From contig CANRAU010000013.1 in assembly GCA_947628665.1 (NCBI GenBank), forward strand, positions 1 to 56,794: a stretch of DNA of 56,794 nucleotides, read 5' to 3'. This document shows, piece by piece, positions 5,923-20,145 of this stretch (its first letter is position 1; every line of letters begins with the position of its first letter). The notes under the pieces were generated by a model, which ran no database searches, was not told where the DNA came from, and was given only the letters and a program-made list of their open reading frames with translations. A program made the translations under genes and the position numbers. Source of the stretch: an uncultured Clostridia bacterium. Lineage in GTDB: Bacteria; Bacillota; Clostridia; Oscillospirales; Acutalibacteraceae.

Positions 5923-6244
5923 CAGCCTGTCGATAAACTGTTTTGCGATCACAAAATGCCCAAAAGTTTTCGGCCGCCTTTTTCAAAAGGCGGCGGGGTT
6001 GAGGGGCGGCGCCCCCATCGCAGCCCGCAGGCTGCGAAATCTTTGCCCATAAAGAGCGCAGGAGGGGCGAAAAACAGTCCAGTGGACTGTTTTTCGGTGG
6101 GGATTCTCGCCTGTCGGCTCGGTCGGTGCTTCTGCCTTCGGCAGAGGTGTCCACCGGACACCCGCACCCCTCGCCGGGGGTTCCCCATAATCTTACTCCT
6201 TTTGTGCATATTGCCAAGTGACACATACTTTTTCTACACGCTGA
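5923..6244 (-). repeat. Dispersed multi-hairpin repeat, copy 2 (long form)
   Basis: A 322-bp repeat, nearly identical to copy 4. It is packed with palindromes: GCCGCCTTTT/AAAAGGCGGC, GCAGCCCGCAGGCTGC, AAAAACAGTCCA/TGGACTGTTTTT, TCTGCCTTCGGCAGA and GGTGTCCACCGGACACC. Read on the minus strand it starts TCAGCGTGTAG and carries AAAAGGAG, 7 nt, then ATG (6188). That opens a frame of about 79 codons not preserved in copy 3. It lies between the transporter operon stop and the operon's apparent terminator. Confidence 0.9.
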
Positions 6245-6292
6245 CACAGTCTGCGACAAAGGATTTTGTCGCAGGCTGTGCTTAATTTTTTA
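6243..6292 (+). terminator. Terminator downstream of the transporter operon
   Basis: ACAGTCTGCGACAAA and TTTGTCGCAGGCTGT pair around a short loop, followed by GCTTAATTTTTT. It starts at the very end of repeat copy 2, so the transporter mRNA would include that repeat in antisense orientation. Confidence 0.75.
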
Positions 6293-6410
6293 GACAGTCG
6301 ATACCGACCGAATACAATACGTTTTGCAGGCACGGGACGCGCATAAAAGCATCCGCATCTGCGGATTGAAAGCGATTCAAAAACTTTACACGGAATCTTT
6401 GCGGATGCGG

Positions 6411-6439
6411 TTTACCTTTTCGGGAAAAAATGCTACAAT
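6411..6439 (+). promoter_or_regulatory. Promoter of the yhaM-like operon
   Basis: TTTACC (6411-6416), 17 bp, TACAAT (6434-6439), about 30 bp before the start codon. Just upstream GCATCCGCA (about 6340) and TGCGGATGC (about 6400) form a 9-bp inverted repeat with a ~45-nt loop. Confidence 0.65.
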
Positions 6440-6469
6440 AAAAGCAAATCCGAACAGGTGTGAGGCATT

Positions 6470-7441
6470 ATGAATTTTACCGAAATTTATCCGCACGGCC
6501 CGGTGGAGGGCTTTGCGCTCATTACACAGTCCGAAAAAAAGATCACCGCCAAGGGTAAGGACTATCTCGATTTGGTGCTTTCCGACAGCAGCGGCGAGAT
6601 CTCCGCGAAATATTGGGACTATAACGAAAGCACGCAGGGGCAATTCCCCGCCGAAACGCTCGTCAAGGTGCGCGGCACGATCTCGCAGTATAATGGCGCG
6701 GATCAGTTCCGCGTGGAACGCATTCGCAGAGCGACGGAAAACGACGGCGTCGATATGGCGGATTTCGTGCGTTCGGCCGCATACAAGGGCGAAGATATGT
6801 ACAACCAATTGATGGCATGCGTCAACGCTTTCGACGACGCAGACCTTAAAAAACTGGTTCTGCATTTGCTGGAGGCCAATCGCGAAAAGCTGTTGATCTG
6901 GCCCGCTGCATTCAAGCTGCACCACGCGGTGCGCAGCGGGCTTTTGATGCATACGCTGTCCATTGTGCGCCTGTGCGAGAGCGTTTGCCGCATTTATCCG
7001 TTTGTGGACGCCGATCTGCTCCTTGCGGGCGCGGTGCTGCACGACATCGCAAAGCTCTCGGAATTCGTTGTGGGCAACGCGGGCATCGCTTCGGGCTATA
7101 CGGCCGAGGGCAACCTGATCGGGCATTTGGTCAAGGGCGCGATGCTCATCGACGCGGCGGCAAAGGAACTCGAGATCCCCGAGGAAAAATCCATGCTTTT
7201 GCAGCACATGGTGCTGTCGCATCACGGCGAACCCGAATTCGGCGCGGCGGTGCGTCCCGCGTTTTTGGAAGCGGAGCTTTTGTCGGAGCTGGATCTAATG
7301 GACGCGCGCGTCTATCAAATCGCCGAAGCGACCGCGCCTTTGCAAAAGGGTGCATTTACCAACCGTTTGTGGGCGCTGGAAAACCGAAAAATGTATAACC
7401 ATGCCCGCGGCGACAAAAACAAAACGGTGTGTTTGGACTGA
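6470..7441 (+). CDS. yhaM: YhaM-like 3'-5' exoribonuclease (OB fold + HD domain)
   Basis: A 323-residue protein with an N-terminal OB-fold (about 10-90, ITAKGKDYLDLVLSDSSG) and a C-terminal HD domain (about 140-300). Metal-site residues are visible as H161 in LLMHTLS, the HD pair in LHDIAKLSE (191-192) and HH in LSHHGEPE. This matches YhaM of Bacillus, a manganese-dependent 3'-5' exonuclease of RNA and single-stranded DNA. Length is normal (YhaM is about 314). First gene of an apparent operon with the DUF2804 gene and prmA. Confidence 0.9.
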   Translation: MNFTEIYPHGPVEGFALITQSEKKITAKGKDYLDLVLSDSSGEISAKYWDYNESTQGQFPAETLVKVRGTISQYNGADQFRVERIRRATENDGVDMADFVRSAAYKGEDMYNQLMACVNAFDDADLKKLVLHLLEANREKLLIWPAAFKLHHAVRSGLLMHTLSIVRLCESVCRIYPFVDADLLLAGAVLHDIAKLSEFVVGNAGIASGYTAEGNLIGHLVKGAMLIDAAAKELEIPEEKSMLLQHMVLSHHGEPEFGAAVRPAFLEAELLSELDLMDARVYQIAEATAPLQKGAFTNRLWALENRKMYNHARGDKNKTVCLD

Positions 7442-7489
7442 CGGGGTTTCGGTTCAGAACCCGGTAAAAAATAAACGGGAGGTCATTTT

Positions 7490-8515
7490 ATGAGAAATCA
7501 CGAAGTCACCAAGGTGCAAAAGCTGCTGCGTATCGACGGGTCTTTAAAAGAGCCGGGCTGGTCGCGTCAGCTGTACCAAATCTATGACCGCGCGGACATC
7601 AAAGTGCCGAAATTCCGCATCAAGGAATGGGATTATTATTTGGTGCTTTGCAAGGATTACGCGGTGGCCTTTACCGTTTCGGATGACGGCTACATCGGTC
7701 TGCAATCCGTTTCACTTTTGGATTTCCGCGATACGCCGTGGGAACATACCGAAACGATCCTACAGCCCTTCCCCATGGGCAAGCTGCATATGCCGTCCAC
7801 GAGCGAATCGGGCGATGCGGTATACCGTGACAAGCGGCTGAACCTGCAATTCTGCAAAACCGACGGCGCGCGCCGCATCATTTGCCAGTTCAAAAACTTC
7901 ATGGACGGCAAGACCTTCTCCTGCGATATTACGCTGGAACAGCCGCCGATGGATACCATGGTCATCGCCACGCCCTGGAAAGAGAATAAAAAAGCCTTTT
8001 ACTACAATCAGAAAATCAACTGTATGCGCGCCAGCGGCACGGTGCATTTCGGCGGCGAGACCTACACCTTTGACCCCGAAACCGATTTCGGTACGCTCGA
8101 CTGGGGCAGAGGCGTCTGGACGTATGACAACACCTGGAACTGGGGTTCGGGCAACGCGGTCGTGAACGGCAAGCCCTTCGGCTTCAACATTGGCTACGGC
8201 TTCGGCGACACCTCGGCGGCGAGCGAAAACATCCTGTTTTATGACGGCGTGGGGCATAAGCTCGACGACGTCACCTTCCACATTCCCGAAAGCTCCTATA
8301 CCGACCCGTGGAAAATCTCGTCGAGCGACGGGCGCTTTGAAATGGATTTTGTGCCGATCATCGACAGAGCCGCCAAAATCGACGTCAAGGCCATTGTGAC
8401 CGATCAGCATCAGGTATTCGGAAAAATGAGCGGCACGGCGATTTTGGACGACGGAACAAAGCTCGAAATTCAGGATCTTACATGCTTCTGCGAGCGCGTA
8501 CACAACAAATATTGA
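7490..8515 (+). CDS. DUF2804 domain-containing protein
   Basis: A 341-residue soluble protein of the DUF2804 family, predicted to be mostly beta-sheet and rich in Trp and Tyr. Typical segments are FRIKEWDYYLVL (about 42-53), TDFGTLDWGRGVWTYDNTWNWGSG (in two parts, about 201-224) and FGFNIGYGFGD. No signal peptide is visible. Function is unknown; the fold has been likened to lipocalin- or hydroxyneurosporene synthase-type barrels, which is inference. AGGAG-type SD (GGGAGG) before the start. It sits between yhaM and prmA with short gaps, so it is probably co-transcribed. Confidence 0.85.
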   Translation: MRNHEVTKVQKLLRIDGSLKEPGWSRQLYQIYDRADIKVPKFRIKEWDYYLVLCKDYAVAFTVSDDGYIGLQSVSLLDFRDTPWEHTETILQPFPMGKLHMPSTSESGDAVYRDKRLNLQFCKTDGARRIICQFKNFMDGKTFSCDITLEQPPMDTMVIATPWKENKKAFYYNQKINCMRASGTVHFGGETYTFDPETDFGTLDWGRGVWTYDNTWNWGSGNAVVNGKPFGFNIGYGFGDTSAASENILFYDGVGHKLDDVTFHIPESSYTDPWKISSSDGRFEMDFVPIIDRAAKIDVKAIVTDQHQVFGKMSGTAILDDGTKLEIQDLTCFCERVHNKY

Positions 8516-8524
8516 GGAACGTGT

Positions 8525-9454
8525 ATGGATTGGACTGAGGTTTGCATCGAGATCGACGCCGAAAACATCGACCGCGCGGCGGACATTGCCAATATGGCAG
8601 TCCCCTACGGCATTTATATCGAGGATTATCGCCATTTGGAGGAGGAGACGCGCGAGATCGCCAACATCGATTTGATTGACGAAGCGCTTTTGCAAAAAGA
8701 CCGAACCAAGGGCTTGGTGCATTTGTATATCTCTCCCGAGGATAATCCCAAGGAAGCGGTCGCCTTTTTGTCCGAGCGGTTCGCGGCGGCGGGCATTGCC
8801 CACGAGATTCGCCTGCGCGCGTGCAAAAATGAGGATTGGGAAAACAACTGGAAAGCCTACTTTAAACCGATGGAGATCGGCAAACGCCTGCTCATTCAGC
8901 CGTTGTGGATCGACGAGGTCCGCAACCCCGACGGGCGGCAGGTGCTTTGGATCGAACCGGGGCTTGCGTTCGGCACGGGCGGGCATCACACGACGCGCCT
9001 GTGCCTGGAAACGCTCGAAGCCTATATCACCCCCGGCTGTTCGGTGCTGGATACGGGCTGCGGCAGCGGGATCTTGTCGATCGCCGCGCTGCTTTTGGGC
9101 GCAGACGCCGCCGTTGGCGTCGATATCGACGCGCTCGCCGTTAAAACCGCCGTGGAAAACGGGGAACGCAACGGGTTTCGAGCGCCGCGCTACCGTATTT
9201 TGCAGGGGAATCTTGCCGACAAGGTCGAGGGGCAGTTCGACGTTGTGGTCGCCAACATTGTGGCGGATATTATCCTGCTGTTCGCGCCCGACGTCGGCAA
9301 ATTTATGAAAAAGGACGCGGTATTTATCGCTTCGGGCATTATCGACGAGCGCGGGGAAGAGGTCGTATCGGCGCTTCTTAAAAGCGGGCTTTTGGTGGTC
9401 GAACGCCGCGAGCAAAGCGGCTGGCTCTGCCTTGTGTGCAAAAAGACAGCTTAA
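8525..9454 (+). CDS. prmA: Ribosomal protein L11 methyltransferase
   Basis: A 309-residue SAM-dependent enzyme that trimethylates ribosomal protein L11. An N-terminal substrate-recognition domain (about 1-110) is followed by the Rossmann domain, with the family hallmark EPGLAFGTGGHHTT (about 148-161), SAM motif I VLDTGCGSGILS (about 175-186), an acidic VGVDIDALAV loop and VVANIVADII. Length is usual. The start follows GAGGAAC, 9 bp after the DUF2804 stop. In many clostridia prmA sits by dnaK or a 16S rRNA methyltransferase gene; here it does not. Confidence 0.97.
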   Translation: MDWTEVCIEIDAENIDRAADIANMAVPYGIYIEDYRHLEEETREIANIDLIDEALLQKDRTKGLVHLYISPEDNPKEAVAFLSERFAAAGIAHEIRLRACKNEDWENNWKAYFKPMEIGKRLLIQPLWIDEVRNPDGRQVLWIEPGLAFGTGGHHTTRLCLETLEAYITPGCSVLDTGCGSGILSIAALLLGADAAVGVDIDALAVKTAVENGERNGFRAPRYRILQGNLADKVEGQFDVVVANIVADIILLFAPDVGKFMKKDAVFIASGIIDERGEEVVSALLKSGLLVVERREQSGWLCLVCKKTA

Positions 9455-9476
9455 GAATTTATTTGCATTTTGTTCA

Positions 9477-9505
9477 TTGACTTTTTAGTCCCCTGTGGGT
9501 ATAAT
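9477..9505 (+). promoter_or_regulatory. Strong sigma-A promoter of the small membrane peptide gene
   Basis: TTGACT (9477-9482), 17 bp, TATAAT (9500-9505), 33 bp upstream of the small gene at 9538. Confidence 0.85.
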
Positions 9506-9537
9506 ATCCATAGAATCTATATTGGGAGGATGTTCTT

Positions 9538-9717
9538 ATGAAAAAAGCTTTGAAAATCATTGCGATCCTTGCCGCCGTCGCGGGCGTTGCGTTCGGCGTT
9601 TATATGCTGGTACGAAAATATGTGGAGAGCAAAAAGGTCGTGATCGGCAACGATGCGGAAAATTATGTTTCCTGCTCCTGCTGCGACGATACTTTCGTTT
9701 CCGAAACGGTTGCGTAA
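9538..9717 (+). CDS. Small membrane peptide with a C-S-C-C motif
   Basis: A 59-codon gene with a clear GGGAGGA ribosome site and its own near-consensus promoter and terminator, so it is very likely real. Residues 6-25 form one membrane helix (IIAILAAVAGVAFGVYMLVR). A basic stretch and a short tail with SCSCCDD (45-51) follow. The signal-anchor layout and Cys cluster suggest a membrane-tethered peptide that could bind metal or form disulfides. I do not recognise the family. No partner gene is evident: prmA is upstream and an ECF sigma gene downstream, each with separate signals. Confidence 0.8.
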   Translation: MKKALKIIAILAAVAGVAFGVYMLVRKYVESKKVVIGNDAENYVSCSCCDDTFVSETVA

Positions 9718-9739
9718 CACACACGATAGAAAATCTTCC

Positions 9740-9770
9740 GCACAGCGCTTTTGGGCGCTGTGCTTTTTTT
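9740..9770 (+). terminator. Intrinsic terminator of the small membrane peptide gene
   Basis: GCACAGCGC, a TTTTG loop and GCGCTGTGC, followed by seven T. Confidence 0.92.
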
Positions 9771-9894
9771 GCGTCGCATCCGACGTTTTTTCGCTTCGGC
9801 GGTCGGACGCGGAATTTTTCGGGCGAAAAGCGTGGGATTTTCTGTCGAGCCGTGTATAATGATATAGAAAGCGCTTTGGAGAGGAGGCGATCCT

Positions 9895-10437
9895 ATGCGT
9901 GAGCAGGAGATCATCGATCTGCTGCTGCGGCATAACGAACATGGTATGGAAGCTCTGCTTCAATACTACGGCCCGCTGCTGCGCTATATGATCGCGTCCA
10001 TTCTCCCCGACCCGCAGGATCAGGAGGACTGTCTTTCCGAAGTGCTGATGCGCGTATGGGATAAAATCGAGCAATTCGACCGTTCGCGCGGGAGCTGGAA
10101 CGCATGGCTGACGGCGCTTGCGCGGAACGCGGCGTTGAACCGCGCGAGAAAAGCGCAAGCGGCAAGCTGTACGCAAACGCTCCCGGAAAACAGCGCGTCC
10201 GCAGAGCCGACGCCCGAGGAGATCGTGATCCGGCGGGAACGCGAGGAACGTCTCCGCCACGCTTTTATGCTGTTATCGTCCAAAGAGCGGATGCTGATTT
10301 ACAGGAAATATTATTACTTGCAGTCCACGGCACAGATCGCCCGCGAGCTCGGGACGACCGAACGGGCTGTGGAAGGGAAATTGTACCGCATCAAAAAGCG
10401 GCTGCGTAAAATGTTGGGAGGTGACGGGCATGTTTGA
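9895..10437 (+). CDS. ECF-type RNA polymerase sigma factor
   Basis: A 180-residue sigma-70 family regulator. Region 2 lies in about 20-85 (DPQDQEDCLSEVLMRVWDKI, with the acidic DCLSEV helix). Region 4 lies in about 125-175 (LSSKERMLIYRKYY, then the HTH STAQIARELGTTERAVEGKL). The length and two-domain form are those of ECF sigmas. It has a strong GAGGAGG ribosome site. Its stop overlaps the start of the next gene, a large membrane protein that is the natural candidate for its anti-sigma factor or sensor. The target promoter cannot be deduced. Confidence 0.92.
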   Translation: MREQEIIDLLLRHNEHGMEALLQYYGPLLRYMIASILPDPQDQEDCLSEVLMRVWDKIEQFDRSRGSWNAWLTALARNAALNRARKAQAASCTQTLPENSASAEPTPEEIVIRREREERLRHAFMLLSSKERMLIYRKYYYLQSTAQIARELGTTERAVEGKLYRIKKRLRKMLGGDGHV

Positions 10438-11971
10438 TTCCGAACGGCATTTTATGCAGGAAACGGATCTTGACGAGCGCTTAAAGCGCGACATACCCGA
10501 TCCCCCTCCCGAAGAGATCATCCACCAGGTGACCCCGTGGAGAAAAGCGATGCGGCAAGTGCTGTTCGGTTCGGCGTTTGCCTCTATAACGCTGCACGCG
10601 TACTGCCTGGACTATATTCTCCCAGCCGTCGGCATGATTTTGTCGATATTGGGCTTTCGCACGCTGCGAAAAGAGAACAAGTGGTTTCGCACCTGCTTCC
10701 TGCTCACCGCCGTACAGGCTGTGTACTTGTTTGTGCATTTGATTTTAAACACTACGATCCTGCAAGAAGCGGGCAATACGTCCCTCGAATGGTGGGTACT
10801 GGTCGTAGGAAAAGCCGCGCTGGCGTTCAGCACCCTCTATGGCCTTTGGAGAGGGCTTCGAGCCGTGCAAAAAAAAGCCGGTCTGCCGCCGCGCGCGGGC
10901 AGCGCGCTTGCGCTTCTCGCGTGGAATGTTGTGCTTTACGTGATTGGCGTGCTGTGCCCCGACGTTATGATTCTTGCGGGCGTGATGATCGTTGCCTATA
11001 TTTTGATCATCCGAAGTCTTTATAAACTGTCGAAAGAGCTTGACCACGCAGGCTATACCATTGAGACAGCGCCTGTCAAAGTGACCGACCGCGCGGCAGC
11101 CATCGGGCTCACTGCCGTTTTGCTGATCGGATGCGTCTGCGGCTATGCGTTCGGCGGCAGTTACCGCATGGATTGGACGCCGTTACCGGAAGCCGAGCAT
11201 CAGGGAGCGACGGACATCGAAACGCATCTTTTGGATTTAGGTTTTCCGAAAGATGTCCTCGACGATCTGCAAAGCGAAGAAGTACTCGCGTGTAAGGACG
11301 CTTTGCAGGTCATCTCCCAAACCTATGACGCCAAAGCCGGGTACGGAATCATAGACACGCTGTCGAAAGATTCATCCGATCCGAACGCGAGTTCCACCGC
11401 GGCTTCGCTTCGCATCACCACGGTCGCCGTGCAGCTGCCGGGCGAGCGCGCAGAGTGGCGGATGATCCATCATTTTCAGTGGTTGGATAAGCCCCGGTTT
11501 TACGGCACGGAAGCCATACGAATCCGAACGTCCTATAACATGGAGAACTGGGACTATATAGGTCCTGCGAGCGGCCGACTGTTGTATACGAAAAACGGCA
11601 CATCCTACACCGCTTTGTACCATTTCCTCGGCGATCAGGCCTATACTTCGTCCGATATGGTTTTGGGGGAGACAACCTCCACGGATCTTTTTGCCGCTTT
11701 CTCCTTGCCAAACGACGGGGAAAATCAGAGGGGCTATATTGCTTATACGGTTCGTTCCAAACCGATCGCTTCGATCCTGAATACATTGATCGATTACAAT
11801 CATCAGAAATCTCTGCTTCAGTATCCCGCTGTGACCGCTATGGAAAATTGTCAGACCGATGTTTGGAGTCGCGCTTATGCGTTTAAGTTGATCAACGATC
11901 AATTTCTGCTCCACCCGGATGATGCATACCCGCCGATTGTGGATAAGGCGGACAGCAAAGAGACGGCGTGA
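10430..11971 (+). CDS. Membrane protein coupled to the ECF sigma factor (possible anti-sigma/sensor)
   Basis: A 513-residue protein whose ATG overlaps the sigma gene stop by 8 bp, with GGGAGG 8 nt upstream. A cytoplasmic leader of about 45 residues contains DERLKRDIPDPPPEEI and VTPWRKAM, which resembles the sigma-binding tail found next to clostridial ECF sigmas. About six membrane helices (residues ~45-235) follow, then an extracytoplasmic domain of about 260 residues rich in beta-type sequence. No catalytic motif was recognised. The overlap and architecture suggest it senses an envelope signal and restrains the sigma factor; this is inference. The last codons lie inside the terminator stem. 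Confidence 0.75.
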   Translation: MFDSERHFMQETDLDERLKRDIPDPPPEEIIHQVTPWRKAMRQVLFGSAFASITLHAYCLDYILPAVGMILSILGFRTLRKENKWFRTCFLLTAVQAVYLFVHLILNTTILQEAGNTSLEWWVLVVGKAALAFSTLYGLWRGLRAVQKKAGLPPRAGSALALLAWNVVLYVIGVLCPDVMILAGVMIVAYILIIRSLYKLSKELDHAGYTIETAPVKVTDRAAAIGLTAVLLIGCVCGYAFGGSYRMDWTPLPEAEHQGATDIETHLLDLGFPKDVLDDLQSEEVLACKDALQVISQTYDAKAGYGIIDTLSKDSSDPNASSTAASLRITTVAVQLPGERAEWRMIHHFQWLDKPRFYGTEAIRIRTSYNMENWDYIGPASGRLLYTKNGTSYTALYHFLGDQAYTSSDMVLGETTSTDLFAAFSLPNDGENQRGYIAYTVRSKPIASILNTLIDYNHQKSLLQYPAVTAMENCQTDVWSRAYAFKLINDQFLLHPDDAYPPIVDKADSKETA

Positions 11972-12000
11972 CGAAAGTCCGCCGTCTCTTTGCTGTTTGC
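11952..12000 (+). terminator. Intrinsic terminator overlapping the end of the membrane protein gene
   Basis: A perfect 17-bp stem (ACAGCAAAGAGACGGCG with its complement at 11980-11996) encloses the TGA stop in its loop, followed by TTTGC. It directly abuts repeat copy 3. Confidence 0.85.
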
Positions 12001-12236
12001 TCAGCGTGTAGAAAAAGTATGTGTCGCTTGGCAATATACACAAAAGGAGTAAGATTATGGGGAACCCCCGGCGAGGGTTCCCCACCGAAAAACAGTCCAC
12101 TGGACTGTTTTTCGCCCCTCCTGCGCTCTTTTGGACAAAAATTTCGCAGCCTGCGGGCTGCGATGAGGGCGCCGCCCCTCAACCCCGCCGCCTTTTGAAA
12201 AAGGCGGGCGAAAACTTTTCGTTATTTTGCTGTCTG
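12001..12236 (+). repeat. Dispersed multi-hairpin repeat, copy 3 (short form, opposite orientation)
   Basis: It begins TCAGCGTGTAG and carries AAAAGGAG then ATG at 12057. It lacks the ~57-base insert of copies 2 and 4 and has the uninterrupted GGGGAACC/GGTTCCCC hairpin. It diverges from them after GAAAACTTTT (about 12210) and loses similarity around 12236. Its frame after the ATG shifts relative to copies 2 and 4, which argues against a conserved protein. Confidence 0.88.
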
Positions 12237-12268
12237 TTTTTGTGTTTCGCATGGGCTGTCTATACCGA

Positions 12269-12622
12269 TCACTTGCTTTTTGGCTTTGCAAGGAACGACA
12301 CCGCAAGACCCGACAGCACCGCCGCCATGATACCCGCGCTGCCCGCTGTCAACGGGCCTGTCAGCACGCCCAGCAAGCCCTTTTCGGCAATGGCCTCTTT
12401 CGTGCCCTGCACAAGCACATTGCCAAAGCCCGTTAAAGGAACGCTCGCGCCCGCACCCGCCCATTCTACCAGGGGCTGGTAAACGCCGATCGCGCCCAAA
12501 AAGACGCCCAACACCACAAACAAAACCAGAATACGCGCAGGCGTGAGCTTGGTATAATCGATCAACAGCTGACCGACCACACAAATCAGCCCGCCGACTA
12601 CAAATGCTTTTAAAAATATCAC
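12269..12622 (-). CDS. spoVAE: Stage V sporulation protein AE
   Basis: A 117-residue membrane protein, the usual SpoVAE length, with about four helices. Typical segments are GQLLIDYTKLTPARIL (about 20-35), GVYQPLVEWAGAGASVPLTG (about 51-70) and AEKGLLGVLTGPLTAGSAGI (about 83-102). In Bacillus and Clostridium it helps form the inner-membrane channel for dipicolinic acid of spores. The start is GTG with GGAGG 8 nt upstream. spoVAC and spoVAD, the usual neighbours, are absent here. The upstream region is filled by an inverted-repeat element, so the promoter was not located. Confidence 0.93.
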   Translation of the reverse strand: MIFLKAFVVGGLICVVGQLLIDYTKLTPARILVLFVVLGVFLGAIGVYQPLVEWAGAGASVPLTGFGNVLVQGTKEAIAEKGLLGVLTGPLTAGSAGIMAAVLSGLAVSFLAKPKSK

Positions 12623-12642
12623 AATGCATCCCTCCGACGAAA

Positions 12643-12838
12643 GTCGAGGGAAGTCGAATCCCGCACGGTTTCTCACGGCGTATTTCGGCGGCTGCCGCGT
12701 TGAAAGTCCTCGGCATACGGCAGTATTCCTGTGGCTTTCGCCTTGCATCCGCACAAAATCCGCTTGTGAGAAACAGCCTGTCCCCGCAAGGGCATCCAAT
12801 CGGTCGTTTTCGGCGTGCGGCATTCGGCTTCCCTCGAC
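12643..12838. repeat. Inverted-repeat element (MITE-like), ~196 bp
   Basis: The 25-bp ends 12643-12667 and 12814-12838 are inverted repeats matching at 23 of 25 positions (outer sequence GTCGAGGGAAG). A second nested pair, GTTTCTCAC (12668-12676) and GTGAGAAAC (12766-12774), lies inside. No coding potential or clear target duplication is seen. It fills the gap between spoVAE and the aldo/keto reductase promoter. Confidence 0.7.
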
Positions 12839-12858
12839 TATACAATTTACAGAAAAAA

Positions 12859-12887: not shown

Positions 12888-12916
12888 ATAGATAAATTCC
12901 GCTTTGAGGTGATTTT

Positions 12917-13783: not shown

Positions 13784-13789
13784 AAACGA

Positions 13790-13825
13790 AACGGCAGAGA
13801 CGAATTCGCCTCTGCCGTCTTTTTC
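13790..13825 (+). terminator. Terminator between the aldo/keto reductase and nrdR
   Basis: ACGGCAGAG and CTCTGCCGT pair around CGAATTCG, followed by CTTTTT. It probably acts for the plus-strand gene and partly for nrdR converging on it. Confidence 0.85.
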
Positions 13826-13866
13826 CCTGCATTTCCTTTTTCGGAGTAGATCGGACGCCGATGCCG

Positions 13867-14322
13867 TCAGCGGTTTTTCAGCAACGCCGACAGTTCATCC
13901 ATAAATGCGTTGATGTCGCGGAAATGCCGATACACCGACGCAAACCGCACGTAAGCGACTTCGTCAATATCCTTGAGCTTATCCATGGCAAGCTCGCCGA
14001 TATGTAAGGACGTCACTTCGCGGTCGAGCGAGTTTTGCAGGCTGATCTCGATGTCGTCCACGGCTCGCTCCAGCGTCTCCATGGCAACGGGACGTTTTTC
14101 GCATGCGCGCAAAAGGCCGTTGAGCAGCTTGTTGCGGTCAAACGCCTCACGGGATCTATCCTTTTTGACGACCAGAATCGGCACGCTTTCAATGATTTCG
14201 TAAGTGGTGAAGCGCTTGGAGCATTTCAAACATTCGCGGCGGCGGCGGATGCGCTCGCCCTCGTCGGTCGGACGCGAATCAATCACTTTGCTTTCCTCGT
14301 AGCCGCAAAACGGACATTTCAT
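13867..14322 (-). CDS. nrdR: Transcriptional repressor NrdR
   Basis: A 151-residue repressor of ribonucleotide reductase genes that senses ATP/dATP. An N-terminal zinc ribbon (CPFC at 3-6 and CLKC at 31-34) with the invariant [16 protein letters not shown] is followed by the ATP-cone domain (about 49-139, [16 protein letters not shown]). The Met at 14322 was chosen among three nearby starts because GGAAG is correctly spaced and the family begins MKCPFC. Confidence 0.97.
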
Positions 14323-14366
14323 AACCATCACTTCCGATTTTTAAACAATATATGGGGTTTTATGTT

Positions 14367-14395
14367 ATTATAGCAAAATTCCGACACAATGTAAA
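14367..14395 (-). promoter_or_regulatory. Promoter of nrdR
   Basis: Minus strand: TTTACA (14395-14390), 17 bp, TATAAT (14372-14367). Confidence 0.8.
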
Positions 14396-14398
14396 GTA

Positions 14399-15181
14399 TT
14401 ACAGCCATTTTTCCAACGTATCGCGCGCTGCGGCGATCTGCGCGGGGTCTGTGTAGCTGTTTTCGTACAGCTCAATCATGTAATCGCCCGTATACCCTTT
14501 TTCGCGCATCACGGCAAAAAAGCGTTTGAAATCGAACTGCGCGTTTTCACAAAGCGGCACGACGCAATCCTTCGTCGGAGTATAGTCGCTGATATGCACG
14601 TGCACAATGGAATCCGCGAATTGATCGACAAACACATACGGATCAAGCCCCGTGCGCCGCGCCTGTTTAATGTCCAAAACCAATTTGAAATCCTGCCCGA
14701 GCGCCTTTTGCATACGCGCCAAATATTCGGGACTTTCGGAGCGGTAATGCACCACGTTTTCCTGACAAAGCGTGACGCCCGCCTCTTTGCCGAGCGTATA
14801 AAGCGTATGGAAACGAGAAAACACATCCTCATCGGGGATACTGCCGGGGATCTTCGCACCGTGCATGATCAAAAGCTCCGCGCCCAGGGTCTGCATCCCG
14901 TAAAAATAACGTTTGAAATCCTCCAGGCTCTCTGTGTATCGGCGTTCGTAGGAACTGAAAAAATAATACGACTCCGTAAACGAAGCGTAGGTATGGAAGC
15001 TCTTGACGCGCATCCCGTAGGTTTTCTGAATATCGCGCAGCCGCCCGATGAAATCCCGATCCAGCTCCCGCGCCGAATTGAAAAAAATCTCCACACAAGG
15101 CGCGCCGAGCCTGCCCGTTTCGATCAGGGACGCTTCGGTCGTCTGCGGATAAAAACACGAAGTGGAAATGCCGATTGCCAT
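14399..15181 (-). CDS. Sugar phosphate isomerase/epimerase family protein (AP_endonuc_2 TIM barrel)
   Basis: A 260-residue TIM-barrel protein. Metal-ligand positions are seen in ELLIMHGAK, CQENVVHY (Glu), LVLDIKQARRTG (Asp), IVHVHISDY (His) and YMIELYENSY (Glu). The family includes sugar and inositol isomerases or epimerases and endonuclease IV; the pattern here favours isomerase or epimerase. The start at 15181 has AGGAG 7 nt upstream; longer starts have no site. It diverges from the small membrane gene at 15263 and no sugar pathway genes are adjacent, so the substrate is unknown. Confidence 0.85.
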   Translation of the reverse strand: MAIGISTSCFYPQTTEASLIETGRLGAPCVEIFFNSARELDRDFIGRLRDIQKTYGMRVKSFHTYASFTESYYFFSSYERRYTESLEDFKRYFYGMQTLGAELLIMHGAKIPGSIPDEDVFSRFHTLYTLGKEAGVTLCQENVVHYRSESPEYLARMQKALGQDFKLVLDIKQARRTGLDPYVFVDQFADSIVHVHISDYTPTKDCVVPLCENAQFDFKRFFAVMREKGYTGDYMIELYENSYTDPAQIAAARDTLEKWL

Positions 15182-15262
15182 AGATGTTCTCCTGCCAAAA
15201 TTTGTGTGTTGCGGCAAAATGCGCTGCCTGTTACTATTATTGTAATAGGGAGGTACATAAAA

Positions 15263-15559
15263 ATGCAAGTGTTAATTGCACAGCTTCGGGAATTTTTCGG
15301 GTGCTTTCAGCCCATTGTACGCAAAATCCTCCGGCATGGCCTGCCGCTTGTGTGCGCACTGTATGCGGGCGGCTTCTTTTGCCGCTTCGCCGCAGGACAT
15401 ATCGGAAACGCGGATCGGGTGCTGCGCCTATGCGAAGAGCTGCTCGTCTGCGGCAAGGAAATGCTGGGCGCCGTGGTGATCCCCGCGTTGCTTTTGCAGA
15501 TGTTTTACATCGCGTATGCCTATGACCGCGGGGAATCGCTCAGCGATCCTCCGAAATGA
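15263..15559 (+). CDS. Small hypothetical membrane protein
   Basis: A 98-residue protein with GGAGG 9 nt before its ATG. Two hydrophobic segments are seen (about 27-46, and about 68-86 with VVIPALLLQMFYIAYAYD). I do not recognise the family. Its start is separated from the divergent isomerase gene by about 80 bp, so the two probably share a regulatory region. Confidence 0.65.
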   Translation: MQVLIAQLREFFGCFQPIVRKILRHGLPLVCALYAGGFFCRFAAGHIGNADRVLRLCEELLVCGKEMLGAVVIPALLLQMFYIAYAYDRGESLSDPPK

Positions 15560-15562
15560 AAA

Positions 15563-15588
15563 CCGCCTGTGCATAACACACAGGCGGC
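15563..15588. terminator. Hairpin after the small membrane protein gene
   Basis: CCGCCTGTG and CACAGGCGG form a 9-bp stem. No T-run follows on the plus strand, so the assignment as terminator is weak. Confidence 0.45.
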
Positions 15589-15600
15589 ACAAAAGCCGAA

Positions 15601-15677
15601 TCGCAAACGCATCATATTCACAACGACTTTTGCGAAACTATGATTTGCAAAAGTCGCAAAAAAATACACGTTTGCGA
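15601..15677. promoter_or_regulatory. Nested inverted repeats upstream of secG
   Basis: TCGCAAACG (15601-15609) pairs with CGTTTGCGA (15669-15677). Inside it CGACTTTTGC (15624-15633) pairs with GCAAAAGTCG (15647-15656). The pair of nested perfect stems ends about 30 bp before the secG -35 box. Confidence 0.55.
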
Positions 15678-15705
15678 AAAAAACAAGAAAAAACCAAAAA
15701 AAGGC

Positions 15706-15734
15706 TTGCTTTTTTCACGGCGCTATGATAAAAT
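15706..15734 (+). promoter_or_regulatory. Promoter of secG
   Basis: TTGCTT (15706-15711), 17 bp, TAAAAT (15729-15734). Confidence 0.75.
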
Positions 15735-15779
15735 ACCAAGGCATTGAAGAAACTATTCTTGTCGATTGGAGGTCAAAAA

Positions 15780-16028
15780 ATGGGCGCTCTTGAAATCATT
15801 CTCGGCATTTTAATGATCATCACTTCCCTTGTGATCATCGCAATCGTTTTGATGCAGAAAAGCCGTGAGGGCGGTCTTTCCGGCGCAATCGCGGGCGGTT
15901 CCGACACCTTCTTCGGGAAGAATAAAGGCAGAACGATCGAAGCGCGTTTAGCAAAAATCACGCGCTATGTTGCCATTGTGTTCTTCGTCCTCGCGATCGC
16001 CTCTACGCTTCTGCTGCTCTTTTTCTAA
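15780..16028 (+). CDS. secG: Preprotein translocase subunit SecG
   Basis: An 82-residue membrane protein of the SecYEG translocon. Two helices are seen (about 4-24 and 55-80). Between them lies the conserved loop LMQKSREGGLSGAIAGGSD (23-41) and then FFGKNKGRT, the diagnostic SecG motif. The ATG at 15780 follows GGAGG by 7 nt; an upstream TTG lacks a site. It is followed by a terminator and tRNA-Lys. In many Firmicutes rnr and smpB follow secG; they are not here. Confidence 0.96.
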   Translation: MGALEIILGILMIITSLVIIAIVLMQKSREGGLSGAIAGGSDTFFGKNKGRTIEARLAKITRYVAIVFFVLAIASTLLLLFF

Positions 16029-16060
16029 AAAGCAGTCGGAAAACAGCAAAGAAAATCACG

Positions 16061-16087
16061 AAAGCGGTTTTTCAAAACCGCTTTTCC
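16061..16087 (+). terminator. Terminator of secG
   Basis: AAAGCGGTTTT and AAAACCGCTTTT pair around TC. It ends a few bases before tRNA-Lys. Confidence 0.85.
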
Positions 16088-16090
16088 TAT

Positions 16091-16166
16091 GAGCCATTAG
16101 CTCAGTCGGTAGAGCACTTGACTTTTAATCAAGGTGTCCGGAGTTCGAATCTCCGATGGCTCACCA
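16091..16166 (+). tRNA. tRNA-Lys (anticodon UUU)
   Basis: A 76-nt cloverleaf: acceptor GAGCCAT/ATGGCTC, D-loop AGCTCAGTCGGTAGAGC, anticodon stem CTTGA/TCAAG with loop CTTTTAA (anticodon TTT), T-arm CCGGAGTTCGAATCTCCG, and an encoded CCA end. Confidence 0.99.
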
Positions 16167-16167
16167 G

Positions 16168-16212
16168 GGAACGGTCATTTTCAGAAGAAAATGACCGTTC
16201 CTTTTTTATTTT
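16168..16212 (+). terminator. Terminator of tRNA-Lys
   Basis: GGAACGGTCATTTTC and its complement form a perfect 15-bp stem with an AGAA loop, followed by TTTTTTATTTTT. Confidence 0.95.
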
Positions 16213-16313
16213 TCTCTCTTTGCCGTCTCTGATACGAACGCCGCAAAAACACGGCAGAAAAAAGTGAAAAAGTCGAGACAGGTCAGGCATATTGCATATG
16301 CCGCATAAAATTT

Positions 16314-16376
16314 TACGTAAAAATACGTATTTATAGTTGTGAAAGCCTTGACATACGTAAAAATACGTATTAAAAT
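16314..16376 (+). promoter_or_regulatory. hicAB promoter with two identical operators
   Basis: TTGACA (16348-16353) and TAAAAT (16371-16376) are separated by exactly 17 bp, and that spacer is TACGTAAAAATACGTAT. The same 17-mer recurs at 16314-16330, with centres 40 bp apart. Each contains two TACGTA palindromes separated by AAAA. This fits autorepression by HicB or the HicAB complex. Confidence 0.85.
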
Positions 16377-16417
16377 AATATTGTAATTGACATAAATCAC
16401 CGAAAGGAGGCATACAT

Positions 16418-16603
16418 ATGAAGTACAGTGAACTCGAAAAACTATTAAAGCAAAACGGCTGCATAGTTCTTCGAGAAGGCGCGAATCATTGCATATGGTA
16501 CAGTAAAATGACAAATACTAAATTCACTGTGCCGAGACACAAATCAAAAGAAGTTCCAAAAGGCACATTCGATGTCATTATGAAATCAGCGGGGCTGAAA
16601 TAG
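16418..16603 (+). CDS. hicA: HicA family toxin (mRNA interferase)
   Basis: A 61-residue protein with the compact dsRBD-like HicA fold: KYSELEKLLKQNGCIVLREG, then the catalytic His in GANHCIWYS (H24), then FTVPRHKSKEVPKGT. HicA toxins cleave mRNA independently of ribosomes and are neutralised by HicB. AAAGGAGG precedes the ATG. The region is AT-richer than its neighbours and lies between a tRNA terminator and a metabolic gene, which suggests acquisition. Type II toxin-antitoxin pair with the gene at 16737. Confidence 0.93.
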   Translation: MKYSELEKLLKQNGCIVLREGANHCIWYSKMTNTKFTVPRHKSKEVPKGTFDVIMKSAGLK

Positions 16604-16736
16604 GCCCCGCAGAAAAGGCATTTACATATAAAGATCAAAATCCTGTCAGACAAGAAAGACGAAATAAAGAAGGAGCGCGGAAATCAAAAAGGACAAGCCA
16701 AAAGGAGCAAAAAGGAAGAACCAAAGGAGCAACAAA
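16604..16736 (+). other. Purine-rich gap between hicA and hicB
   Basis: A 133-nt spacer with no start codon in use. It holds three SD-like repeats (GAAGGAGCG at 16671, AAAAGGAGCA near 16699, AAAGGAGCAA near 16723); only the last is spaced for hicB. hicA and hicB usually lie closer. Confidence 0.6.
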
Positions 16737-17135
16737 ATGAAAAAATATTTCTATCCGGCCATCGTTACACAAGAAAAAGAAAATGTATATTCTGTTATTT
16801 TCCCGGATATTGAAGGATGCGTCACATCCGGTGAATCTTTAGAAGAGGTTTACGATATGGCGCAAGACGCATTATGTTTAATGCTCTACGATATGGAAGA
16901 ATCCAACGAGGAAATTCCGACCGCAAGCGATCTTGCAAAAATCAAATTAGATCCAAATCAATTTGTCGTCATTATTTCGTGTGATACGCAGGAATACAGA
17001 AGATATTTTGACAATAAGGCTGTGAAAAAAACCCTGTCTATTCCATCTTGGCTCAATACGGAAGCGGAGCGAAAGGGCGTAAACTTTTCGGCTGTATTGC
17101 AAGAAGCATTGAAAGAAAAATTGAATATCCGGTAA
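16737..17135 (+). CDS. hicB: HicB family antitoxin
   Basis: A 132-residue antitoxin. An N-terminal partial RNase H-like domain (YSVIFPDIEGCVTSGESLEE, about 18-37, the HicB signature) would block HicA. A C-terminal ribbon-helix-helix-type segment (IPSWLNTEAERKGVNFSA, about 102-119) would bind DNA. AAAGGAG lies 7 nt upstream. The likely targets are the paired TACGTA operators in its own promoter. An intrinsic terminator follows. Confidence 0.94.
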   Translation: MKKYFYPAIVTQEKENVYSVIFPDIEGCVTSGESLEEVYDMAQDALCLMLYDMEESNEEIPTASDLAKIKLDPNQFVVIISCDTQEYRRYFDNKAVKKTLSIPSWLNTEAERKGVNFSAVLQEALKEKLNIR

Positions 17136-17146
17136 ATACGTGTAAC

Positions 17147-17192
17147 AAAATCGGCAAGCCCTCCTAAGGGTCTGCCGATTTTATTTTTATAT
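17147..17192 (+). terminator. Terminator of hicAB
   Basis: AAAATCGGCA and TGCCGATTTT pair, with an inner CCC/GGG, followed by ATTTTTAT. Confidence 0.9.
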
Positions 17193-17250
17193 TGCGCTTT
17201 AGACGTTTGCTTGATGAGCAAATATTTTTGCGGTTCTTACGCCAAGGTGA

Positions 17251-18207
17251 TCATGCCTGCCGGGGAAAGAACATCTGCGCTCCCGTTTGGCGCACCCATG
17301 TATGGATCACCTTGGGGTTTTCAAAAATGGCGTCCAGCGTTTGCAAAAACGGGACGATATCCCCGAAATCGAGTGCGCGATGATCGAACGCAATGCAGAT
17401 CGGCAGCACCTGCCGCGCTTCGACCTGCTTTCTGCCGAAGGCGTCGGTGATGACCACGGGCTTATCCTGCACCGCGCCCACGCCGAAAGCGCAGACCTGC
17501 GGCGGGACGATTTCCAAAAGGCTCAGCGCGCCCTTTTGCCCTCTGTAATTCGAGCCCACATTGGAAACCGTGACCGTGCCGGGTTCTAAATCGGCTTTGG
17601 TCAGACGTTCTGTCGCGGGGATGCGCGCAAATTCGCGTTTGGCTTTTCCGTGCAGCGTTTTTACTTTATACCGCCCCGTTTTCGAGCCAATCACCCGAAA
17701 GATCGTTTGCGCGATCTTCCCTGCACGCAACGCTGTTAAGGTATTGTCGAGCGACACCTCATACATGGCCTGCTGCAAATCGCTTTGCGCGGCACGGCGG
17801 GAAAGGTCGCGCACATATTCCGATATTTCGTCCAAATTTTTGCTCTCGCAATGCGGCAGCTTCACCGTCATCATTTCTCCGTTGGGCATCAGCATCGGCA
17901 TGGAAATATCGATTTCGGAAAACGTCTCGAGTGTCCCTCGCACGAGCTTGCGACGGAAATGCAAATGCGCGTTCATATTCGGCGCGGCCTGCAGTCCCAT
18001 GCAAATCGTTTTGAGCAGCAGTGTATTTACGGTGATTCTATCCGCCGCGCGGCGGTTGAGATTGAGTTTTTTATATTCACGCATAAAGTCTGTGACGTCG
18101 GGTTCATACATATACGTGACATGCGGGATCGTCTCCCAGCTTTCCGAGGTCATATTGGCCACGATTTTTCTTTGTATCCCGAAATGGGTGGTGCGTTCTG
18201 GCTGCAT
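17251..18207 (-). CDS. E2-like 2-oxo acid dehydrogenase acyltransferase domain, stand-alone
   Basis: A 318-residue protein made only of the catalytic acyltransferase domain of dihydrolipoamide acyltransferases. ADRITVNTLLLKTIC (about 62-76), VSNVGSNYRGQKGALSLLEI (about 210-229) and CIAFDHRALDFGD (about 270-282) match its core; the His of DHR is the catalytic base. The usual HxxxDG reads HRALDFGD, and no lipoyl or E3-binding domain precedes it. No E1 or E3 genes are nearby. A role as an acyltransferase with a free-standing carrier, or as an oligomeric scaffold, is speculative. The ATG at 18207 follows AAAAGGAG. Confidence 0.85.
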   Translation of the reverse strand: MQPERTTHFGIQRKIVANMTSESWETIPHVTYMYEPDVTDFMREYKKLNLNRRAADRITVNTLLLKTICMGLQAAPNMNAHLHFRRKLVRGTLETFSEIDISMPMLMPNGEMMTVKLPHCESKNLDEISEYVRDLSRRAAQSDLQQAMYEVSLDNTLTALRAGKIAQTIFRVIGSKTGRYKVKTLHGKAKREFARIPATERLTKADLEPGTVTVSNVGSNYRGQKGALSLLEIVPPQVCAFGVGAVQDKPVVITDAFGRKQVEARQVLPICIAFDHRALDFGDIVPFLQTLDAIFENPKVIHTWVRQTGAQMFFPRQA

Positions 18208-18406
18208 AGGTATTGCTCCTTTTGAGATTCCATTTATTTGTATTCCGTAACCGCCTGTTGTATTTCTGCGGTACAACCTTATCCTATGCTTTTTCCCACA
18301 ACTTTGCCATACACTTCGGTTTCCAAAATCGATTTCGGGCGCAAATACAGGTTGCGCAACGTCCGCAACCGCGCTGTTTCGCCATTTTTTTCGTACAAAG
18401 GAAAAC

Positions 18407-18440
18407 GAGGGTTTGCCAAAACGACGAACCCTCGTACATT
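18407..18440 (-). terminator. Terminator downstream of the M28 peptidase gene
   Basis: CGAGGGTT and AACCCTCG form the stem. T-runs occur on both sides, so it may also act in the plus direction. Confidence 0.7.
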
Positions 18441-18457
18441 TTTTTGCTGTCCGAATT

Positions 18458-19699
18458 TTACTGCTTTGCGCCGTTGTCAAACATTTCCAGCGCTTTGACG
18501 CTGATTGCGAAGCAGCCCGCAAGCCCTTCCAAATTCATGTTGTCGTATGTATCGCGGCGCGTGTGGTAATAGTTCTCCAACTTGTGGTTCAACCCCGTAA
18601 TGCCCGTTGTGCGGAAGCCCGCCTGCGCAAACGCAGCGGCGTCTGTCGCACCGCCAAGCGGCGGAACCCAGCCCTTTGTGCAGGGGATGTTGATCGCCTC
18701 GGCCGCTTCCATAAACAGGTCGGAAACGTCCTTATCCGTTTTGACCGTACCGTTGAGGTCGCGGTAGTTGGTCATCAAATATTTCGGATCGTGAATGGTA
18801 TCGTAGGAAATGATAAAGGTTGGCACGTCGTCGAATTCGCCCTTGTGCCTTTCGCTCCATGCCTTAGAGCCGCGAAGCCCCGCTTCCTCAGAGCCGGTCA
18901 AAATCACGCCGAGTTCGGTATTCTCAAACGCGATGCCCTCGTCTTGCAGAGCTTTCAGAACGGCAATGCCCATGTAGCAGCCCGAAAGGTTGTCGTTCGC
19001 GCCGTCTACGATGTGGCGTTCATTCCACATAAAGTAAAGGCCAATCAAAAACGGCAGAAATACCAGACCGCATAACGCCAATTTAAACAAAGTGGAATGG
19101 GTATCGGGAAGCCCAAAGGAAACGCCGTTTTGCGCCATGAAAAGAATGGAAAGCACAAGATAATAGATCGCGCCGACGCCGCAGATGATTGCATGCGCCT
19201 CAAAAGCTACACCGCCGAACATATAGTTGACCGGCCATTCCCAAACCGCGTCGGGGTGTCCGTTAAAAAGGATGCGGCGTTTGACCTCGCCCGTACAGCT
19301 CTTGATCGCGGTCACGTTATGCCCCGTTTTTTGCGGGAAGAAGCGATCGACCACTTTCTTATACATACCGAACTGCACAAACGCAAGTCCCAACCCCAAA
19401 ACGATCAGAACGGCGGACGCGAGCGGGAATACAAACAGCAGTGCGATTGCCAGCAGCACAAAAGTAATGGTGAAATAGATCCAGCCGAAAAACGCGTTGG
19501 GGTTTTCCTCAAAGGATTCCAGCTCTACGTGTTCGCAGCCGCACTGATTTTTCAGCACGTCCGCCATGTATTCGCAGGCCTGCTTCTCCCCTTTTGAACC
19601 GGGGTCACGCTTTTCAAAGGTCTTGCAGATATGGGTGATCTCATCCACCATATACTGCGCAGCGGCATCTTTTTTGTCGATGATGTTTTGCAGATTCAC
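18458..19699 (-). CDS. M28 family metallopeptidase with membrane segments
   Basis: A 413-residue zinc aminopeptidase-type protein. Candidate zinc and catalytic residues: H and D in FNGHPDAVWEW, D in GANDNLSG, the EE pair in TGSEEAGLRGS, D in IISYDTIHD and the last His in LNHKLENYYH. Four hydrophobic segments interrupt the fold (about 75-120 and 175-235), so it is probably membrane-anchored. The start is GTG after TTAGGAGG. The substrate is unknown. The gene is separated from mtnA by repeat copy 4. Confidence 0.87.
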   Translation of the reverse strand: MNLQNIIDKKDAAAQYMVDEITHICKTFEKRDPGSKGEKQACEYMADVLKNQCGCEHVELESFEENPNAFFGWIYFTITFVLLAIALLFVFPLASAVLIVLGLGLAFVQFGMYKKVVDRFFPQKTGHNVTAIKSCTGEVKRRILFNGHPDAVWEWPVNYMFGGVAFEAHAIICGVGAIYYLVLSILFMAQNGVSFGLPDTHSTLFKLALCGLVFLPFLIGLYFMWNERHIVDGANDNLSGCYMGIAVLKALQDEGIAFENTELGVILTGSEEAGLRGSKAWSERHKGEFDDVPTFIISYDTIHDPKYLMTNYRDLNGTVKTDKDVSDLFMEAAEAINIPCTKGWVPPLGGATDAAAFAQAGFRTTGITGLNHKLENYYHTRRDTYDNMNLEGLAGCFAISVKALEMFDNGAKQ

Positions 19700-19806
19700 G
19701 GGATGACCTCCTAACATAATGTACCATTTTAGTTTATCACAGCCTGCCTGCCAAATTATGAACAAATTATGAACAATAGGAAAGAAAAGACAAAAACCAC
19801 CCGATC

Positions 19807-19823
19807 TCAAAAATCGGACGGCT
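19807..19823. repeat. Left 17-bp direct repeat flanking repeat copy 4
   Basis: TCAAAAATCGGACGGCT is identical to 20157-20173, the last codons and stop of mtnA. With CCGATC before it, it forms a second copy of a terminator hairpin that is followed on the minus strand by TTTTTGTCTTTT. Confidence 0.8.
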
Positions 19824-20145
19824 CAGTCTGTCGATAAACTGTTTTGCGATAGCAAAATGCCCAAAAGTTTTCGGCCGCCTTTTTCAAAAGGCGGCGGGGT
19901 TGAGGGGCGGCGCCCCCATCGCAGCCCGCAGGCTGCGAAATCTTTGCCCATAAAGAGCGCAGGAGGGGCGAAAAACAGTCCAGTGGACTGTTTTTCGGTG
20001 GGGATTCTCGCCTGTCGGCTCGGTCGGTGCTTCTGCCTTCGGCAGAGGTGTCCACCGGACACCCGCACCCCTCGCCGGGGGTTCCCCATAATCTTACTCC
20101 TTTTGTGTGTATTGCCAAGTGACACATACTTTTTCTACACGCTGA
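19824..20145 (-). repeat. Dispersed multi-hairpin repeat, copy 4 (long form)
   Basis: 322 bp, the same length as copy 2 and almost identical in sequence, from CAGTCTGTCGATAAACTG to CTACACGCTGA. AAAAGGAG with ATG at 20089 reads on the minus strand. It lies between mtnA and the M28 peptidase gene. Together with its flanking terminators it fills the 457-bp gap, and no gene is supported there. Confidence 0.92.

What the first reader, a model, noticed from the sequence alone, without database searches (positions are those of the whole stretch)
5923..20145. Family of dispersed multi-hairpin repeats whose one end always abuts a terminator-like stem-loop
Four copies (1-103, 5923-6244, 12001-12236, 19824-20145) share a ~230-322-bp sequence made largely of palindromes, in two size classes. 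The end TCAGCGTGTAG lies within a few bases of a gene-terminal hairpin in all four. That regularity suggests either insertion targeted to terminators, as known for group IIC introns and some IS elements, or a functional 3' unit. An SD plus ATG is kept in three copies, but the frame is not, so an RNA role or a non-autonomous element seems more likely than a protein.
Basis: partly seen in the sequence, partly recalled or inferred. Interest (0 to 1): 0.72.

Follow-up and report, generated by a model that had tools for sequence, protein, structure and literature searches.

The report
Mobile element that duplicates terminators
The repeats are small jumping DNA elements that land at the foot of the hairpin ending a gene and copy the entire hairpin, so that the same gene-end signal sits on both sides of most copies.

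Summary
The repeat is a non-autonomous transposable element (MITE) of an IS1182-family transposon, with ends CAGCGTGTAGAAAAAGT... and ...TTTATCGACAGACTG and no transposase. This genome holds roughly 30-38 insertions. In 14 of 15 copies with both ends on one contig, the same complete terminator hairpin flanks both sides, far above 210 mis-paired controls. The hairpin is a target-site duplication (19-41 bp here), centred on the hairpin's dyad exactly in 35 of 43 scored pairs and within 1 nt in 39. Thirteen IS1182 copies with such ends do the same (one has a broken transposase), as does one on a Fusobacteriota plasmid. Beside window copy 4 the duplicated piece contains the coding end of mtnA. The two size classes differ by 63-nt internal modules. 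Mechanism (inferred): a DDE transposase joins the element to the 5' feet of a cruciform, so the stagger equals the hairpin. A 2017 model drew this as a hypothetical branch; published IS1272 data show hairpin loss. No partner transposase was found in this genome. Novelty: new variant of a known kind.

The parts
19824..20144 (-). MITE copy 4, long class, complete; left (CAGCG) end at 20144, right end (CAGTC on the + strand) at 19824
20145..20173 (-). hairpin, left copy of the target duplication; contains the last codons and TGA stop of mtnA; no T-tail
19797..19823 (-). hairpin, right copy of the target duplication, followed by the T-tail (the only terminator-like call on this strand in 19600-20400)
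5923..6243 (-). MITE copy 2, long class, complete
6245..6280 (-). terminator hairpin abutting the left end of copy 2; the right-hand copy is missing
6104..6166 (-). 63-nt GGCGAG-bounded module (one in long class, absent in short class, tandem elsewhere)
5957..6189 (-). multi-hairpin core; also dispersed in this genome without these ends
12002..12236 (+). MITE copy 3, short class, right end degenerate
11952..11996 (+). terminator hairpin 5 nt before the left end of copy 3
1..102 (-). MITE copy 1, cut by the contig end
103..137 (-). terminator hairpin abutting copy 1; a matching hairpin lies beside the unpaired right end at C34:5456
20157..21188 (-). mtnA (S-methyl-5-thioribose-1-phosphate isomerase); its 3' coding end is part of the duplicated hairpin

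Best explanation
The repeat is a MITE of an IS1182-family transposon. Shown: its ends match the inverted ends of transposase-bearing IS1182 elements; it sits at the feet of intrinsic-terminator hairpins in either orientation; and the complete hairpin is duplicated at both sides, with cut points symmetric about the hairpin's dyad in most scored pairs. Inferred: the terminator extrudes as a cruciform (or folds when single-stranded), a trans-acting IS1182 DDE transposase joins the two 3' ends of the element to the two 5' feet of the stem-loops, and repair then copies the whole hairpin. The two attack points are neighbours at the four-way junction whatever the stem length, so the linear stagger varies (15-41 bp over all scored pairs, medians 27-28) while the geometry is constant. 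Also inferred: because the far-side hairpin keeps its A- or T-run, transcription from either side still meets a full terminator, which makes insertion cheap. The internal hairpin core is cargo picked up between the ends. The original partner transposase has been lost from this genome.
For: Own genome: 14 of 15 two-ended copies carry the same hairpin on both sides (alignment scores 33-77; 210 mis-paired flanks: median 11, maximum 19); in these 14 the alignment starts at offset 0 from the right end in 13 and 2 nt in one, and ends 0-3 nt from the left end. Over own copies, other species and IS elements, 55 of 61 flank pairs pass the cut-off (own 19 of 21, six of the 21 being contig-end pairs matched by hairpin; other species 23 of 27; IS 13 of 13). 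The duplicated segment is exactly centred on the dyad in 35 of 43 scored pairs, within 1 nt in 39. No orientation bias in own copies: T-run stronger 8, A-run stronger 8, equal 3. Three right ends that the first survey had missed were then checked against the unpaired left ends: two have a clear hairpin partner (scores 37 and 44; next best 15 and 19), one has none. Beside copy 4 the duplicated hairpin contains the mtnA 3' coding end; in the orthologous stretches printed for G013, G015 and G031 it is seen once. Of 40 IS1182-type loci examined, 13 have ends CAG(A/C/T)(C/T)TGTC(G/A)A or close to it and a duplicated hairpin; six of the 13 are copies of one IS, identical over 1526 bp, at six different terminators. 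Their transposases are NCBIfam NF033551, IS1182 (385-403 bits, cut-off 270; 5 of 5 tested). A truncated IS of this type abuts a hairpin in the same genus. Swap test: a seventh identical chromosomal copy (L211) has two different hairpins; the plasmid pTVN copy has one of them on its left, and the other, expected on its right, was found there. Cetobacterium somerae plasmid: 22-bp hairpin duplication. Short elements with one such end and unrelated interiors in two other families of the order: 4 of 5 loci have the duplicated hairpin.
Against: No transposase of this type was found in the window genome, so mobilisation in trans is not shown here. The subterminal sequence of the MITE matches no full-length IS that I found; the link rests on about 15 terminal bases and on the target habit. 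Six of 61 flank pairs miss the cut-off (three of them look like the same hairpin diverged), and a few duplications are AT-rich with no strong stem, e.g. L084 and L169. Eight of 43 scored duplications are not exactly dyad-centred, two of them off by 10 or more. Window copy 2 lacks the right-hand hairpin. No same-species empty site was available; one look for an empty allele on Enterococcus faecalis plasmids was not clean. Two Enterococcus plasmid IS1182 copies showed no clear whole-hairpin duplication. IS1182-type elements with other ends show none, and a published IS1182-family element (ISCaa15) is listed with 4-bp direct repeats (PMC3196728 passages), so the habit is not family-wide. The cruciform step is inference.
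Confidence: 0.87

Rival explanations
1. Stem-loop replacement as reported for IS1272: the element inserts at hairpins and removes all or part of the stem-loop, with no duplication.
For: IS1272 belongs to the same family and targets terminators (PMC4923244 passages; PMC5678879 abstract, passages and Discussion part 1).
Against: Here the hairpin is gained, not lost: 55 of 61 flank pairs keep two copies.
Confidence: 0.03
2. Element derived from a terminator-targeting group IIC intron or other retroelement.
For: Group IIC introns insert beside terminator stems (recalled).
Against: No intron among the three Rfam hits in the window; inverted ends shared with a DDE transposon and long direct duplications.
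Confidence: 0.02
3. A functional 3' RNA unit kept beside terminators by selection, not by insertion.
For: Internal stems covary (15 of 63 pairs).
Against: It does not explain identical hairpins on both sides of each copy with a different hairpin at each locus, nor the same pattern around unrelated interiors and around full IS elements. It may still apply to the cargo.
Confidence: 0.05
4. The duplication arises from a process other than cruciform strand transfer, e.g. insertion into a hairpin folded on single-stranded lagging-strand DNA followed by copying.
For: Equally compatible with a dyad-centred whole-hairpin duplication and with the lack of orientation bias.
Against: None decisive from sequence alone.
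Confidence: 0.25

Closest known systems
IS1272 / TnSha1 (IS1182 family)
   Same: Same transposase family; intrinsic-terminator hairpins as targets without sequence consensus (PMC4923244 passages; PMC5678879 abstract, passages, Discussion part 1)
   Different: IS1272 is reported to delete or replace the stem-loop and to leave no duplication; here the whole stem-loop is duplicated
Pathway b in the model of Wan et al. 2017 (PMC5678879, Fig 13)
   Same: [quoted passage not shown] this is what is seen here
   Different: There it is a hypothetical branch drawn beside the IS1272 pathway; the part I read gives no example
IS1182-like element ISEfa7 of Enterococcus
   Same: Named IS1182-like in the records; about 50% amino-acid identity to the L212 transposase; end CAGACTGTAGACAAAG is similar
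   Different: Its target habit could not be read from the one record examined, where it sits next to an IS256 transposase gene
Terminator-targeting group IIC introns
   Same: Insertion beside intrinsic terminators (recalled)
   Different: No intron structure found here; inverted ends and long direct duplications

Membership tests
MITE of an IS1182-family element | Terminal inverted repeats matching those of autonomous family members | tested here: met
   CAGCGTGTAGAAAAAGT and CAGTCTGTCGATAAAC against CAGYCTGTCGAAAAAGTCC and CAGCCTGTAGAAAAAC of transposase-bearing elements
MITE of an IS1182-family element | Same target and target duplication as the autonomous element | tested here: met
   whole-hairpin duplication in 42 of 48 MITE flank pairs and 13 of 13 IS flank pairs scored
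MITE of an IS1182-family element | No transposase gene inside | tested here: met
   longest ORF touching copy 2 is 119 aa and runs past both ends; no PF13751 match in the genome
MITE of an IS1182-family element | Subterminal sequence shared with a specific full-length parent | tested here: inconclusive
   no full-length parent with the same 55-nt left end seen in the searches made (listings capped); the SD-ATG position is similar
MITE of an IS1182-family element | Mobilised in trans by the family transposase | not testable with these tools
   needs a transposition assay
IS1272-type stem-loop replacement | Stem-loop removed, no duplication | tested here: not met
   two hairpin copies in 55 of 61 flank pairs
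Group IIC intron | Group II intron RNA domains | tested here: not met
   Rfam scan of the window at gathering thresholds: three hits, none an intron
REP/BIME repeats with RAYT transposase | RAYT (Y1 HUH) transposase partner | not tested
   not searched

The most novel reading that the evidence does not exclude
A clade of IS1182 transposases and their MITEs, in Clostridia and at least one fusobacterium, sets its target stagger by DNA structure instead of by length: it reads the four-way junction at the foot of a terminator cruciform and so duplicates the entire terminator. Each insertion copies the terminator with it, which keeps termination on both sides and lets such elements build up in gene-dense genomes without harm.
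Probability: 0.55. Interest if true: 0.8.

Novelty: new variant of a known kind. Interest (0 to 1): 0.62.

Why it matters
DDE transposons normally make a duplication of fixed short length (recalled). Here the length follows the hairpin and is centred on its dyad, which is natural evidence that a transposase reads a folded DNA target. It supplies many sequence cases for a route drawn only as hypothetical in the part of the 2017 IS1272 paper that I read, beside the reported deletion route in the same family. It suggests why such elements are tolerated at gene ends, and the duplicated hairpin can be used to propose joins between contigs broken at these repeats.

Tried and rejected
Group IIC intron and IS1272-type replacement were considered and set aside (see rivals). 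Orthologous empty sites: the genus is too diverged (66-73% nucleotide identity over the mtnA matches listed) for the terminator letters to be conserved, so only the coding part of the hairpin is informative. An empty allele was sought on plasmids: for Cetobacterium the flank matched only its own record; for Enterococcus faecalis the records found either carry the same insertion or a diverged site with another hairpin. PF13751 in the genus gave one hit in which I saw no exact match to the ends. A first script for right ends timed out and was replaced by a BLAST-based one. Pattern hits in G141, G181 and G154 showed no hairpin or element features in the stretch printed and were set aside without further test. 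Literature: the ten searches listed no paper that I could identify as describing whole-terminator duplication; beyond the papers named in the report I also saw passages of PMC4438569 and PMC9782665, which do not bear on it, and only listings of the rest. Two reviews I wanted are not held. I recall, from no call, that ISfinder lists IS1182 duplications as variable, up to about 60 bp, so curators may know long duplications.
Full report
Observation. The four copies exist. The window is a whole contig (C13) of a 2.0-Mb genome in 35 contigs, and copy 1 is cut by the contig end. With exact ends drawn, the element runs from CAGCGTGTAGAAAAAGTATG to TTTATCGACAGACTG. At 22 of 27 left ends a stem foot lies within 3 nt, and the same holds at 19 of 23 right ends, against 110 of 2407 random positions.

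The main result. In the own genome 27 left and 23 right ends were located (two very degenerate left ends listed were not kept), and 15 copies have both on one contig. In 14 of the 15, the left and right flanks hold the same hairpin (local alignment scores 33-77; 210 mis-paired flanks: median 11, maximum 19). The exception is window copy 2. Several contigs end inside copies. Six unpaired left ends have a matching hairpin beside an unpaired right end on another contig, for example window position 102 with C34:5456 (five of the six pass the score cut-off). While checking this report I found that three right ends listed (C14:75, C34:75, C35:3765) were missing. Each has a hairpin beside it, and two match left ends that had no partner (C33:102, score 37; C31:10052, score 44); the third has no partner. 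The number of insertions is therefore about 30 to 38, depending on how many broken ends belong together.

Across own copies, MITEs of other species and IS elements, 55 of 61 flank pairs pass (the two pairs are not in this count). Of the 55, 12 were left out of the dyad test because the left alignment did not reach the element exactly. In the other 43 the duplicated segment is centred on the hairpin's dyad exactly in 35 and within 1 nt in 39; four lie 3 to 13 away. In own copies the T-run after the right hairpin and the A-run before the left one are equally strong (8:8, 3 equal), so orientation is free.

Host DNA is what is duplicated. Beside copy 4 the hairpin overlaps the end of mtnA: the left hairpin contains the last codons and the stop, and nearly the same letters recur beyond the element, where they cannot encode mtnA. 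In the orthologous stretches printed for related species this end is seen once. The far-side hairpin is the only terminator-like call on that strand in 19600-20400; the near copy has no T-tail. In G032 an element of this family sits in the opposite orientation at the end of the same gene.

The family. A search of 295 genomes of the order with the right-end sequence found hits in 7. Those in G135 and G146, from two other families of the order, are short elements with unrelated interiors; 4 of these 5 loci carry the same hairpin on both sides. PF13751 (IS1182-type transposase) was sought in 295 genomes of the order and matched in 40. I refetched 40 of the 61 places listed there with wider flanks. 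Thirteen have ends CAG(A/C/T)(C/T)TGTC(G/A)A or nearly so at both sides and a whole-hairpin duplication of 20-35 bp. One of the thirteen (L244) has a broken transposase, and in one (L230) the loops are inverted relative to each other. Six of the thirteen are copies of one IS in G237, identical over 1526 bp, at six different terminators; a seventh identical copy (L211) has different hairpins on its two sides. Of the remaining loci, L226 has different hairpins on its sides, L232 and L233 showed a left hairpin only, and the rest have other ends (GGGGCTGT..., GG(A/C)GCTGTTGACAAA...) without hairpin duplication or could not be resolved. Five of five tested transposases are NF033551, IS1182, with PF13751, PF05598 and PF01609 domains.

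A swap test. The L212 transposase is 100% identical to one on plasmid pTVN of Thermocaproicibacter melissae, so G237 is probably that species (inferred). The pTVN copy has on its left the hairpin found on the right of chromosomal copy L211. If the two copies had recombined, its right side should carry the left hairpin of L211. It does, across the record start, followed by a T-run.

Reach. A Cetobacterium somerae plasmid (Fusobacteriota) carries an IS of this kind with a 22-bp hairpin duplication. Of the other four plasmid records read, the Subdoligranulum one shows a hairpin at the left end only (its right end is outside the piece), pTVN is the swapped copy, and the two Enterococcus ones show no clear duplication. 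A published IS1182-family element, ISCaa15, is listed with 4-bp direct repeats (PMC3196728 passages). The habit is therefore not shared by the whole family.

Partner. No transposase of this type was found in the window genome. In 39 genomes of the genus PF13751 matched 1, and a protein search matched 2, of which one (G031) is a truncated relic whose left end abuts a hairpin. The MITE seems to have outlived its partner (inference).

Anatomy. The left 55 nt end in a ribosome-binding site and ATG placed roughly as the transposase start is in full IS elements. The interior is a multi-hairpin core that also occurs without these ends (own genome; partial core matches in other genomes). In an alignment of 18 core sequences 15 of 63 pairs have two-sided changes, 1111 of 1134 cells pair, and the consensus fold is -83 against a mean of -30 for 30 column shuffles. 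Size classes come from the number of 63-nt modules between GGCGAG repeats: none in the short copies looked at, one in the long, two in C9:69900, and at least five in tandem at the end of C33.

Mechanism. Shown: target, whole-hairpin duplication, symmetry, matching ends, family of the transposase. Inferred: folded target, strand transfer at the 5' feet, repair copying the hairpin. Wan et al. 2017 (PMC5678879; abstract, passages and Discussion part 1 of 2 read) drew this as pathway b beside the replacement route that they assign to IS1272, and Furi et al. 2016 (PMC4923244; passages) report loss of part of the hairpin. Three loci with other ends (L235, L236, L239) have inverted arms on their sides, as if inserted in a loop, which would be their pathway c; I did not test this further.

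Host. Named public contigs with the left end are uncultured Clostridia assemblies labelled 'Lapin' (16 stretches from two assemblies); the window genome itself is unnamed.

Limits. No same-species empty site; terminal sequence link of about 15 bases; no experiment; literature limited to the ten searches listed.

Noticed in passing
window 2759-2987 and 49463-49646: Rfam T-box leader and glmS ribozyme at gathering score.
   Followed up: no
L023, L026, L027, L028, L041 (own genome): The multi-hairpin core occurs without the MITE ends, with other boundaries and covarying stems; what spreads it is unknown.
   Followed up: partly
L044 502-865 (contig C33 end): Tandem array of the 63-nt module, 5.8 copies at 99% match, running to the contig end.
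   Followed up: partly
L230: IS1182 copy whose two flanking hairpins have loops inverted relative to each other; perhaps a loop flip after insertion.
   Followed up: no
L235, L236, L239: IS1182-type elements with other ends seem to sit in the loop of a palindrome, with inverted arms on both sides.
   Followed up: no
L202 / L052 (G032): Element of this family at the end of mtnA in the opposite orientation; seemingly an independent hit on the same gene end as window copy 4.
   Followed up: partly
L080 (G001:C2:36800-41200): Two MITEs 2.8 kb apart with facing left ends; one has two different hairpins, one of them shared with the other copy, suggesting a rearrangement.
   Followed up: no
L169: Two left ends about 190 bases apart beside one AT-rich direct repeat, perhaps two MITEs in tandem.
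   Followed up: no
L256 (plasmid pTVN): The terminator-duplicating IS1182 copy lies beside cas10 of a type III-A CRISPR locus on a 19-kb plasmid.
   Followed up: no
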